Assembly: GCA_022605405.1 (NCBI GenBank)
Contig: JABYQQ010000007.1
Span: 2,356,001 to 2,420,000, forward strand
DNA from: Earliella scabrosa
Lineage: Eukaryota; Basidiomycota; Agaricomycetes; Polyporales; Polyporaceae
Direction: 5' to 3'
DNA: 64,000 nt
Both the position numbers and the translations under genes were made by a program. Shown piece by piece: positions 6,415 through 9,876 of this stretch. The notes below the pieces were generated by a model. The model was not told where the DNA came from, did no database searches, and worked only from the letters and a program-made list of their open reading frames with translations. How positions within the stretch are numbered: position 1 is the first letter of the stretch; each line of letters starts with the position of its first letter.

Positions 6415-7071
6415 ATGAAACTCACAGTCGCAATCCTCGGCCTCGCAGCGTCTCTCGTAGGCCAAAGCTCTGCCACCACGGTTCCTGTGCAGAAAAGACT
6501 TGCCCGTCAGCCGGGATGTATCTGCCAGAGTGGTACGTAGCGATTGCCGTGTGTCGGTCTCCATGCGGTCGTAGAGGGCTGACGATTCGACAGAGGATAC
6601 TTTCTATAGTTACTCCGACCTGCAGAATGCCATCATAGAGGGCGAGTCCAATGCTGTTGGGGGCGTACGGTAAGGGGGCTCTCTGTCGCTCTGTAAGGCG
6701 GAGCTGCACTCACCCGTCTGGTCCAAGCGGGTATCCCCAAGAGTTCTCCAACACGGTTCGTCGCAGGATTTCATGGGCCAAAGCATTCCACTAACTCAGG
6801 GTACGGAGCAGGGACCGGATTTCCCGGGTTGTAAGAACTCCGACGTTCTGTATGCATACCCGCTCCTGCATGGCCAGCACCCCTACACGGGCAATGGCGA
6901 TGTCGGGGACGATCGCGTCGTCTACGACGACAGAGGAAGGTTCTGCGGTGAGTAGACGTCTCAATGTAATTCTTCGTGGATACCTAATTTACGTACCTTG
7001 TAGGCTGCATCACCGAGACCAAGCAGATCCCTGCGGGATCTTTCCGGTGCAGCACGTTCACGATGGATTAG
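6415..7071 (+). pseudogene. RNase T1-like gene, decayed and lacking catalytic residues
   Basis: Same layout as the two paralogues downstream: a signal peptide exon starting MKLTVAILGL, then exons at 6594-6669, about 6728-6755, 6767-6947 and 7004-7071, with introns 6533-6593, 6670-6727 and 6948-7003. In place of the third intron only 11 bases remain (6756-6766, GT at the start and AG at the end). Read through, they shift the frame into a stop at 6792; skipped, the reading frame continues for a total of about 156 codons. In that reading the RNase T1 catalytic positions are changed: the first His is Gln (GYPQEF), the Glu is Ala (LYAYP) and the last His is Glu (CITET). Only the Arg of DDRVVYD is kept. 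A pseudogene is the simplest reading; a non-enzymatic secreted protein is the alternative if the 11 bases are bypassed or are an assembly error. Confidence 0.6.
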
Positions 7072-7760
7072 ACCAAGTACCTAATGCTTTGAAGCCGTCG
7101 CCTTTTCGTTGTATTATCTGCAATTGGGTGCTTCTGTGCATTTAGTACATTAGGCTGAATATGATACATGGAAGCACTGTGTCCGCGTACGTCGAACGAT
7201 TGCTGACACGATCTCGGCCGCCCTCTGGTATCACATTCTCGACAGTCGACTAGTTCAATGACTGCAAGAGCGTGCGGTACTCCACGTTGATGCCACTACA
7301 TCCGCCCGACAACAGCCATCACCATGATGGGAGGTGGTCGTGCTGTTCATGTTGCTGGCTTGAAAGGGCGTCAAGACGACATAAAGCTTGCAATACTGCC
7401 GAAGGATTATGAATGAAGAGGACCTTCGAGCAATAGGCATACCGTTGGCCATACCTCTGCAAACTGAATCTACGTAAGACGTCAAATGCGTCAGCCGCGC
7501 TCACCAGCATTCAGTCCGGACATATGTCCGGTTGCCAGACCGTAATCACAATGGCCCAGAAGTGCTGTGTTCGGTTGTACTCATGGAACCTCAAAAGCGT
7601 GGCACATTTCTGAGGTATGAGGCGAGGTTTGCAGGGAGATTGAGCGCGGCATCTATACCCAGTAGAAGCAGTAACTTGCGTCTCTGGAGGCGCCTTGATC
7701 CGCATAAAGGGCCGAAAGGCAAAGGCTGAAGATGCCCTCGTAGCACCCCTCGTAATCCGC
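7072..7760. other. Intergenic spacer between RNase-like genes 1 and 2
   Basis: About 690 bp with no supported gene. No ribonuclease-like motif was found in it, so no fourth copy is evident. The 3' half must contain the promoter of the second copy; only a weak TATA-like string (CTATACCC, near 7653-7660) is visible. Confidence 0.45.
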
Positions 7761-8169
7761 ATGAAGCTCCCTGTTGCAAGCGTTATCGTGTCATTGGTTC
7801 TTGGGATCGCTACGCTAGCCGACCTCGGGACAGCCAAATGTGTCTGTGGGACAGGTCAGTGTACCATCCGTGCAATCGCAATAAGTGGTACTCATTTTCG
7901 CCATCCAGGAAACCAACTCACGAATTACACCGACACCGACGTCAGCGTTAGCATAACAACGGCAATGTTAGGTAGTCATGGGTAGGTTCGGGTGAAGTGC
8001 ATGATGAAAGTTGCTGAGACGAGTCGCACAGGAGTTATCCTCACGTGTTCCGCAACGGAGAGGCCCGTACCCGATTTGCGCTCTCGCGCACCTGAGTCGC
8101 TAACATCATGTCTATAGAGAATCAACTTCCCCGGCTGCACTGGAGTCACTTTGAATGAATATCCCATCA

Positions 8170-8275
8170 CACGACGGGCATTGGCGTCTGTTAGGGTTTG
8201 TAACAGCCTTGTAACTAGGCGTGAGAATGGACTCCTGTCACCAGCCTAGTCACAAGGCTGGTTCAGGTCCTGAAC
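8170..8275 (+). repeat. Left terminal inverted repeat of the MITE
   Basis: 106-bp arm, about 95 percent identical to the complement of 8356-8461, with five mismatches by eye. The high similarity of the arms suggests a fairly recent insertion or recent family activity. Confidence 0.88.
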
Positions 8276-8355
8276 TTGGCTGACGTAAGACTAGTCCTCC
8301 GTAGTAGTGGCCATTACAAACTCTACTTACTGAGGATAAGTATTACATAATGCCT

Positions 8356-8461
8356 GTTCGGGACCTGAACCAGCCTTGTAACTAGGCTTGTGACAGGAAT
8401 CCATTCTCACGCCTAGTTACAAGGCTGTTACAAACCCGAACAGACGCCAATGCCCGTCGTG
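8356..8461 (-). repeat. Right terminal inverted repeat of the MITE
   Basis: Inverted partner of the left arm. Together they could form a hairpin stem of about 100 bp if transcribed through from the host gene. Confidence 0.88.
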
Positions 8462-8673
8462 TCAAGAAGGGGGCGCCATACCTTGGCGGCCCTCCCGGTG
8501 CTGACCGGGTCATCTACAACAGGGAACGAGGCTTCTGTGGTAAGTTTAGTTGGGTTACATAAGATGCCATGATTCAAGTTGACTGCGAGGGTGCAGGATG
8601 CATTACTCACAAGGGAGCGTCGGGGAACCTATTCGTCCCATGCAACTGGACTTCATCGGTCGAGGGGCTTTAG

Positions 8674-9233
8674 CAGTGAAGAGTATTCGGCTACGTTACG
8701 GCGTGGATTGAAACTGGTATCCCAATAACCTACAATCCATGTCAGGGTGATTATGTCAGCTGAACGGCATCACTGACTTGCGTCAGACCCACCGCAAGAG
8801 CCCGATGGTATCCCCGCATATGCCGCACTAGAAGCCAGTCTAGTGCTTGTTTCATGCGACAGGTGTCTTCGAGATTAGGATTATCGTGCGATCTCTGGCG
8901 GTTCGCTTGCCGGAAAATTACGCTTGAGGCGCATCGTCCGCATGGATGCTTGGAGCAGCGGGAGGCTGCGAACCAATACGGGTTGGCAAGCTTCAAATAG
9001 CTTGCGAACGTTCTTGCTAGGTGTGATTCAAGTCCTCAACTTGCCTAACTTGTGAGCAACGGTCCGTGGTAGCGTCTATGGCAAGAAGTCATCCTTGTCA
9101 CCGAAGCAAGCAAGAAGGGAACGCTCATCATCTGCTGACTGCCGTCATGCTTTGTACCATGTGGTCGGGGTGAGGGACACGCACATGCGTTCAGCCTATC
9201 TCTCCCTTCGCAACGCAACGGGCAAGGAGGGAC
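8674..9233. other. Intergenic spacer between RNase-like genes 2 and 3
   Basis: About 560 bp without a supported gene or recognisable repeat. Its right end is the promoter of the intact third ribonuclease gene. Confidence 0.45.
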
Positions 9234-9240
9234 TATAAAT
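9234..9240 (+). promoter_or_regulatory. TATA box of third RNase T1-like gene
   Basis: TATAAAT 52 bp upstream of the ATG at 9292, similar in placement to the TATA box of the first copy. Confidence 0.6.
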
Positions 9241-9291
9241 CCCGCGGATCGGATGGCCGGTGAGCTCGAAGCTTCTGTGCTCAGCGTCAGG

Positions 9292-9876
9292 ATGAAGCTG
9301 CTCTCCACCATCCTCCTTGCATACGTCGTGTTCGCCTCCGCGCGTGTTGTCAGGAGGCAATCGGGTGGTTGCGAATGCGCGGGTGAGCCGCATGCTGGTC
9401 CTGAACGGCTCGTACGGGCTTACACACACAATAGGGCGCACCTACACCAGCAGTGACATCTTCAACGCGATCGACGAGGCTGAAGATGGTGGAGCGAGGT
9501 GATCGACGCCCCCTTTACATCGCATGTCGCAACTTATGCTTTCTGACAGCGGTTATCCACATCAATATCACAACTTTGAGGTGAGCATTCCGTACCTACC
9601 GACGTACTCTGTCCAGTCATGCTCAGATCGCTGTCTAGGGCTTCTCATTCCCATCATGTTCGGGGGAGTTCTTCGAATTTCCCTTGCAGCACAACCGCGT
9701 ATACACTGGCGGAAGTCCAGGTGCAGACCGCGTCATCTATGATACTCGGGGCAGGTTCTGCGGTCAGTGTATCACCAATGTGTTTTCGACTGCAACTTAC
9801 TGGAAGAACCTCGTCTAAAGCATGTCTGACCCATACTGGAGCGGGCGGGAACAACTTCCTGGAATGTGACTTTTGA
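9292..9876 (+). CDS. Secreted guanyl-specific ribonuclease (RNase N1/T1 family)
   Basis: Intact member of the trio: exons 9292-9382, 9435-9498, 9550-9580, 9639-9762 and 9821-9876, separated by introns of 51-58 nt, give 121 residues. A signal peptide (MKLLSTILLAYVVFASA) is followed by a short basic stretch and the mature enzyme. The RNase T1 catalytic set is complete in order: His56 (GYPHQY), Glu75 (FFEFP), Arg93 (GADRVIY), His108 (LTHTGAGG), and cysteines are placed for disulphides. Family enzymes cleave single-stranded RNA 3' of guanosine through a 2',3'-cyclic phosphate. The length and the lack of long inserted loops argue against an alpha-sarcin type ribotoxin. Likely extracellular; a role in nutrition or in interaction with other microbes is inference. 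Confidence 0.88.

What the first reader, a model, noticed from the sequence alone, without database searches (positions are those of the whole stretch)
6415..9876. Three tandem RNase T1-type genes in three states: decayed, transposon-split and intact
All three have a signal peptide, five exons and the same intron phases (1,2,0,1), so they are direct duplicates. Copy 3 keeps the full His-Glu-Arg-His set. Copy 2 keeps it too but is cut by a mobile element. Copy 1 has lost three of the four residues and has a broken frame. This is a compact natural record of birth and death of secreted ribonucleases in a wood-decay fungus, possibly driven by competition with other microbes.
Basis: partly seen in the sequence, partly recalled or inferred. 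Interest (0 to 1): 0.75.

Follow-up and report, generated by a model that had tools for sequence, protein, structure and literature searches.

The report
Secreted RNase T1 trio, one pseudoenzyme
A wood-decay mushroom carries three neighbouring genes for a secreted RNA-cutting enzyme: one looks normal, one is interrupted by a small transposon, and one, first thought to be wreckage, is an intact gene that seems to have kept the enzyme's shape while losing its cutting site.

Summary
The trio is real (Earliella scabrosa, 6415-9876, + strand), but one of its three states is misread. Copy 3 is an ordinary Po1/He1-type secreted guanyl RNase (121 aa, His-Glu-Arg-His intact, 73-78% identical to its nine best hits); its public model is truncated to 78 aa. 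Copy 2 keeps the four residues but carries a 292-bp foldback MITE (8170-8461, 3-bp target duplication) in exon 4, and its intron-3 donor reads GC. Copy 1 is not frame-broken. With copy 3's intron positions and phases it reads open for 141 aa and equals a public protein letter for letter. It lost three of four catalytic residues (H40Q, E58A, H92E) and six of eight active-site columns, yet keeps all six cysteines and a predicted T1 fold. Under a simple neutral-decay model an open frame after that many conserved changes has probability 0.0004-0.004. Best reading: a fast-evolving secreted pseudo-RNase, like powdery-mildew RALPH effectors in logic, not shown to share their descent. Expression, activity and partner are untested, no close relative of copy 1 was found, and its place in the tree is unresolved. 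Moderately interesting; a new variant of a known kind.

The parts
6415..7071 (+). Copy 1: secreted T1-fold pseudo-RNase gene, 141 aa; exons 6415-6532, 6594-6669, 6728-6755, 6812-6947, 7004-7071 (stop included)
   Evidence: Open with all GT-AG introns, phases 1,2,0,1; identical to P0001; PF00545 36.4 bits; catalytic QARE instead of HERH, six Cys kept
6348..6355 (+). TATA-like stretch about 65 bases before the copy 1 start codon
   Evidence: Pattern scan; no transcription start known
7761..8673 (+). Copy 2: RNase T1-type gene, interrupted; exons 7761-7854, 7909-7981, 8032-8062, 8118 onward; after the element to 8539; 8597-8673
   Evidence: Pieces read apart: no stop in the 82-aa 5' piece; H, E before and R, H after the element
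8063..8117 (+). Copy 2 intron 3 with a GC donor in place of GT
8170..8461 (.). 292-bp foldback MITE (ends CACGACGG...CCGTCGTG) in copy 2 exon 4, target duplication TCA
   Evidence: two other places 96-97% identical (C32, C11)
9292..9876 (+). Copy 3: intact Po1/He1-type secreted guanyl RNase, 121 aa; exons 9292-9382, 9435-9498, 9550-9580, 9639-9762, 9821-9876
   Evidence: PF00545 79.7 bits; E 1.1e-45 to PDB 7w05; HERH
9234..9239 (+). TATAAA about 58 bases before the copy 3 start codon

Best explanation
A tandem array of three Po1/He1-type secreted RNase genes has split into three fates. Copy 3 stays a guanyl RNase: secreted, six-cysteine T1 fold, His40/Glu58/Arg77/His92 chemistry (sequence shown, activity inferred). 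Copy 2 has the full catalytic set but is interrupted by a non-autonomous element that moved recently (insert shown, recency inferred from 96-97% identity of two other places). Copy 1 is an intact gene for a secreted T1-fold protein that has lost the acid/base and guanine-recognition residues and so very probably cannot cleave RNA by the T1 mechanism, while selection kept frame, splicing and cysteines through at least part of its very fast divergence (sequence shown; selection inferred from a neutral model; expression unknown). Most likely mode (inferred): it works by binding, either RNA/ribosomes or a protein that recognises the T1 fold, as a decoy or antagonist, much as proposed for the non-catalytic RALPH protein BEC1054.
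For: Copy 1 model with copy-3 intron positions is open and equals public protein P0001, 141 of 141 residues. PF00545 above its cut-off. Of 35 columns conserved in at least 85% of 39 relatives it keeps 2 of 8 active-site and 19 of 27 other positions, Fisher p 0.039 (the eight were chosen from recalled T1 biochemistry). All six Cys kept. Length changes against 29 relatives fall between conserved motifs and at the ends and keep the register. Neutral model: 14 changes in 34 conserved columns need a mean of 94 substitutions; P(no stop) 0.18, P(open frame with indels) 0.0004-0.004, with 16 splice bases and ATG also intact 0.00002-0.00015. Divergence from copy 3 by codon position 0.41/0.46/0.68, pS 0.85 against pN 0.41 over 120 codons. 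Predicted fold matches an RNase He1 entry best (7w05, TM 0.76 by target) at a confidence like that of an active relative (pLDDT 71.6 with 40 rows; P0002 69.9 with 30 rows). Among 139 proteins held, 126 have all four columns filled and 123 of these are HERH; only copy 1 lost more than one. Copy 1 is 43% identical to copy 3 against 33-41% to P0002-P0019.
Against: No transcript, protein or assay evidence. By its own sequence copy 1 found only itself at E<=0.001 (1 of 11 candidates), so conservation across species could not be shown, and its branch is the longest by far: both also fit a gene recently freed from selection. In the 44-row tree it did not group with copy 3. Gene finders return open models by design: 37785 open four-intron models exist for the region under loose rules, 582 with the family motifs; the argument rests on the model with copy-3 boundaries. 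Saturated pS cannot separate selection on copy 1 from selection on copy 3. The Fisher p is modest. The fold prediction leans on an alignment of active relatives. The neutral model takes copy 3 as ancestor and assumes indel rates.
Confidence: 0.7

Rival explanations
1. Copy 1 is a pseudogene in slow decay whose frame happens still to be open; annotation pipelines made a model of it.
For: Three catalytic residues and most of the GSPGA loop gone, longest branch of 25 and of 44 rows, no close relative; the neighbouring copy 2 is interrupted, so this array does lose genes.
Against: Neutral model gives P(open frame) 0.0004-0.004; all eight splice sites canonical, six Cys kept, losses denser in the active site. 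A recent release from selection is not excluded.
Confidence: 0.22
2. Copy 1 still cleaves RNA with a rearranged active site (for example Arg77 with a new general base).
For: Arg77 and Tyr38 equivalents are kept; a His40 mutant of RNase T1 is called partially active in the title of entry 2aad.
Against: Both histidines and Glu58 are replaced together, and Glu46 and Phe100 equivalents are gone.
Confidence: 0.05
3. The three genes are not sister duplicates: copies 1 and 2 are old paralogues lost in other polypores, or came from elsewhere.
For: Copy 2 pieces score about as well or better against enzymes of other genera as against copy 3 (5' piece: Po1 89, copy 3 81; 3' piece: P0019 134, copy 3 124). 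Copy 1 is only slightly closer to copy 3 (43%) than to P0002-P0019 (33-41%) and joined Daedalea/Fomitopsis rows in the 44-row tree.
Against: Same exon plan, phases and strand within 3.5 kb; a clade of copies 1 and 3 is not rejected (AU p 0.49).
Confidence: 0.3

Closest known systems
RNase Po1 (Pleurotus) / RNase He1 (Hericium), guanyl-specific secreted RNases of the T1 family
   Same: Copy 3: best solved relatives by sequence (7w05, 5gy6/6ls1, 3who), HERH, six cysteines in the same columns. Copy 1: same predicted fold and same cysteines.
   Different: Copy 1 lacks the H40, E58, H92, E46 and F100 equivalents; copy 2 is interrupted.
RALPH effectors of powdery mildews (BEC1054/CSEP0064, AVRPM2, AVRa22)
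   Same: Secreted T1-fold proteins without the catalytic set (PMC6464244, abstract and passages); Foldseek lists 8phy, 8oxj, 6fmb below the true T1 enzymes (E 0.013-0.15).
   Different: Copy 1 lies in a wood-decay basidiomycete beside an active-looking paralogue and keeps the six-cysteine plan, whereas RALPH profiles have two conserved cysteines (PMC8715435, passage); no shared descent beyond the T1 fold was shown; no host target is known.
CACTA/EnSpm-like MITEs (recalled class traits: ends in CAC, 3-bp target duplication)
   Same: Ends CACGA, 3-bp duplications at 11 of 13 full-length places.
   Different: No autonomous partner was sought; the superfamily is a lead only.

Membership tests
RNase T1 family, Po1/He1 type (copy 3) | PF00545 domain above curated cut-off | tested here: met
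   79.7 bits, cut-off 24
RNase T1 family, Po1/He1 type (copy 3) | His40, Glu58, Arg77, His92 equivalents | tested here: met
   HERH
RNase T1 family, Po1/He1 type (copy 3) | Six cysteines in the Po1/He1 columns | tested here: met
   All six; the disulfide pairing itself is recalled
RNase T1 family (copy 1) | PF00545 domain and T1 fold | tested here: met
   36.4 bits; predicted fold best matches an RNase He1 entry
RNase T1 family, active enzyme (copy 1) | Catalytic tetrad | tested here: not met
   QARE: one of four kept
RNase T1 family (copy 2) | PF00545 domain above curated cut-off | not tested
   Only pairwise similarity of its two pieces and window tblastn
Pseudogene (copy 1) | Disrupted frame or splice sites | tested here: not met
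   Open, all GT-AG, equals P0001
Pseudoenzyme (copy 1) | Expressed, folded, inactive, with a function | not testable with these tools
   No transcript, protein or assay data
RALPH effectors | Descent within the powdery-mildew RNase-like effector group | not tested
   No RALPH sequence was aligned; only fold matches at E 0.013-0.15
MITE | Short, inverted repeats, target duplication, many copies | tested here: met
   292 bp, arms 89% complementary, 3-bp duplications at 11 of 13 places, 69 matched stretches with both orientations of a place counted apart

The most novel reading that the evidence does not exclude
Copy 1 is a functional secreted pseudo-RNase of a saprotroph, evolving fast under positive selection, that arose next to an active sister and now antagonises or buffers ribonucleases (its sister's, a rival's or a host tree's) by binding RNA, ribosomes or an RNase-binding partner: a RALPH-like strategy reached independently outside plant parasitism.
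Probability: 0.2. Interest if true: 0.65.

Novelty: new variant of a known kind. Interest (0 to 1): 0.42.

Why it matters
The non-catalytic T1-fold proteins that my searches turned up are effectors of powdery mildews. How an RNase becomes such a protein could be followed here, because an active-looking copy, an interrupted copy and an open-frame copy without the active site sit within 3.5 kb in a wood-decay fungus, so the step from enzyme to pseudoenzyme can be tested in isolates of one species. The case also shows that a copy set aside as decayed can be an intact gene.

Tried and rejected
Broken frame of copy 1: rejected. My first hand-set exon edges for copy 1 were off by one and gave stops or a wrong frame (models c1a, c1b, A, B); they were corrected from the enumeration and confirmed by P0001. 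A first script for the catalytic columns failed and was rerun.

A fourth copy: with six queries no hit in the window outside the three genes is below E 0.03 (best 0.037). No further T1 locus in the genome by PF00545, P0001, P0002 or P0069. That exon-by-exon search is weak: it never reported copy 2, and PF00545 did not report copy 1, so divergent copies elsewhere may be missed.

Tree placement of copy 1: not resolved; the bootstrap had not settled and copy 1 joined Daedalea/Fomitopsis rows. Phage collection search with copy 1: no match, as expected. NCBIfam: no family for P0001 or P0002.

Other inactive family members: P0056 (RERH) and P0071 (HERG, or HERC in another alignment) each lack one residue; both are unnamed proteins from metagenome-type sources. 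13 of 139 rows had a gap at one of the four columns and were left out of that count. In the alignment of 81 rows 65 were HERH; of the other 15 besides copy 1, 12 have a gap at one of the columns. Only 120 of 956 hits of the widest search were listed, and words from active relatives favour active hits, so rarity of the loss is not established.

Literature: search listings only for (the last found none); passages read of PMC6464244, PMC8715435 and PMC12550465. The listings showed no title or abstract start about an inactive T1-type protein from a wood-decay basidiomycete; the library lacks most subscription journals.

Full report
What is there. The window lies at G000:C7:2356001-2420000 of a 51.7-Mb, 48-contig genome. 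The copy 1 protein is identical to hypothetical protein C8Q76DRAFT_453968 of Earliella scabrosa, which names the fungus; that it is a wood-rotting polypore is recalled knowledge. Between 6415 and 9876, all on the + strand, lie three RNase T1-type genes.

Copy 3 (9292-9876). Five exons, GT-AG introns of 51-58 bases, phases 1,2,0,1, 121 aa. Pfam PF00545 at 79.7 bits. Closest solved relatives are Hericium RNase He1 and Pleurotus RNase Po1 entries (organism of the He1 entries). The search with it returned 79 of 87 candidates at E<=0.001; the nine best (P0002-P0010) have 73-78% identity and come from named polypores. The public entry for this gene, P0032, has only 78 aa and starts inside what I read as intron 2, so it is a truncated model. 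It has His-Glu-Arg-His. It is an ordinary member of the family.

Copy 2 (7761-8673). The first three exons and the start of exon 4 read open for 82 aa with phases 1,2,0 by exon length (94, 73, 31 nt). His and Glu lie before, Arg and His after the insert. Read onward from exon 4, the frame meets a stop at 8249 inside the insert. The insert spans 8170-8461: arms of 135 nt, 89% complementary, ends CACGACGG and CCGTCGTG, duplication TCA. In the genome search, two other places match at 96-97% over nearly the whole length, others at 68-89%, some of them partial (69 matched stretches, both orientations of a place counted apart). Of 28 loci returned, 23 were of full-element size; 17 of these, being 13 distinct places, showed both ends, and 11 of the 13 carry a perfect 3-bp duplication of varying sequence. 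This is a non-autonomous mobile element; recent movement is inferred from the 96-97% copies. Intron 3 begins with GC; GC-AG introns do exist, so this is a possible second lesion, not a proven one.

Copy 1 (6415-7071). With introns at the positions of copy 3 the gene reads open for 141 aa: exons 6415-6532, 6594-6669, 6728-6755, 6812-6947, 7004-7071, all GT-AG, phases 1,2,0,1. The public annotation has exactly this protein. An open model alone is weak evidence, since 37785 open four-intron models exist under loose rules, 582 of them with the family's motifs. It counts because the boundaries are those of the homologous gene. A TATA-like stretch lies about 65 bases upstream.

What copy 1 lost and kept. 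Tetrad QARE in place of HERH. Of 35 columns conserved in at least 85% of 39 relatives, copy 1 keeps 21: 2 of 8 active-site columns (Tyr38, His40, Tyr42, Glu46, Glu58, Arg77, His92, Phe100 by recalled T1 numbering) and 19 of 27 others, Fisher p 0.039. The p-value is modest and the eight were chosen from prior knowledge. All six cysteines stay. Length changes relative to 29 relatives fall between conserved motifs and at the ends, and keep the register.

Is it decaying? I asked how likely an open frame is if the conserved columns changed only after selection ended. Reaching 14 changes in 34 columns took a mean of 94 substitutions in 363 bases. 18% of runs had no stop. With one indel per 8 or 14 substitutions, and 33% (or, for 14, also 20%) of indels in frame, P(open) was 0.0004-0.004. 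With 16 splice bases and the ATG also intact it was 0.00002-0.00015. A cruder run to 43% identity without indels left 4.6% open. These figures depend on copy 3 as stand-in for the ancestor and on assumed indel rates. They speak against neutral drift over the whole interval, not against a recent release.

Fold. AlphaFold2 on P0001 with 39 relatives gives pLDDT 71.6, pTM 0.64. An active-looking relative (P0002, alignment of 30) gives 69.9 and 0.61, so the middling confidence is not special to copy 1. Foldseek ranks 7w05 (a mutant Hericium RNase) first, then RNase U2, He1, Po1 and T1; 42 matches at E<=0.001. The RALPH effectors AVRPM2, AVRa22 and BEC1054 follow at E 0.013-0.15.

Relatives and tree. 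Copy 1's own search returned only itself at E<=0.001 among 11 candidates. A profile search gave 956 proteins at E<=1, of which 120 were listed. Of 139 proteins held, 126 have all four catalytic columns filled; 123 are HERH, the exceptions being P0001, P0056 and P0071. Copy 1 is 43% identical to copy 3 and 33-41% to P0002-P0019. In trees of 44 and 25 rows copy 3 falls among polypore enzymes with weak support. Copy 1 has a branch of 4.9 to 9 changes per column against a median of 0.26 or 0.17. In the 44-row tree it joined Daedalea, Fomitopsis and a metagenome row (92/87) and not copy 3; the bootstrap there had not settled and the tool warns against such long rows. A clade of copies 1 and 3 is not rejected (AU p 0.49). 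Copy 2 pieces score about as well against Pleurotus Po1 as against copy 3. The duplications are therefore either old or followed by strong acceleration.

Mechanism. T1 catalysis uses Glu58 and His92 as base and acid, with His40 and Arg77 (recalled; the four positions are also named in the supporting text of PMC12550465, passage). Without three of them, and without Glu46 and Phe100, copy 1 should not cleave RNA this way. A fold kept without chemistry suggests binding. The precedent is BEC1054, whose authors propose a pseudoenzyme that binds host ribosomes (PMC6464244, abstract and passages). In saprotrophic Arachnopeziza the one effector candidate with this domain kept its catalytic residues and the authors found no RALPH-like effectors (PMC12550465, passages), so an inactive T1-type protein in a saprotroph is worth reporting. 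The target is unknown; partners could be RNA, ribosomes, the sister enzyme or a foreign RNase.

Verdict. The trio is real, with a corrected meaning: intact enzyme, interrupted enzyme, and an open-frame pseudoenzyme candidate. Interest 0.42.

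Noticed in passing
window 9292-9876: The public protein model of copy 3 (P0032, 78 aa) starts inside intron 2 and lacks the signal peptide and first exons.
   Followed up: yes
window 8170-8461; L011, L012: A foldback MITE family with ends CACGA and 3-bp target duplications; three places in this genome are 96-100% alike, others 68-89%.
   Followed up: partly
window 10346-10819, - strand: Exon of an SF3a subunit 2 (Prp11) homologue next to the RNase array (PF16835).
   Followed up: no
window 20004-20098 and 25985-26079: A 95-nt stretch repeated at 74% identity. 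The first overlaps the 5' end of a - strand frame with a Kelch-like match below Pfam's cut-off, so two related Kelch-type genes may lie here.
   Followed up: no
window 57730-58692, - strand: Open frame with a GH20 hexosaminidase domain 2 (PF02838).
   Followed up: no
P0002 and P0019: Daedaleopsis nitida has two T1-type proteins on contigs of the same listed length (4884068), both HERH; possibly also a local pair.
   Followed up: no
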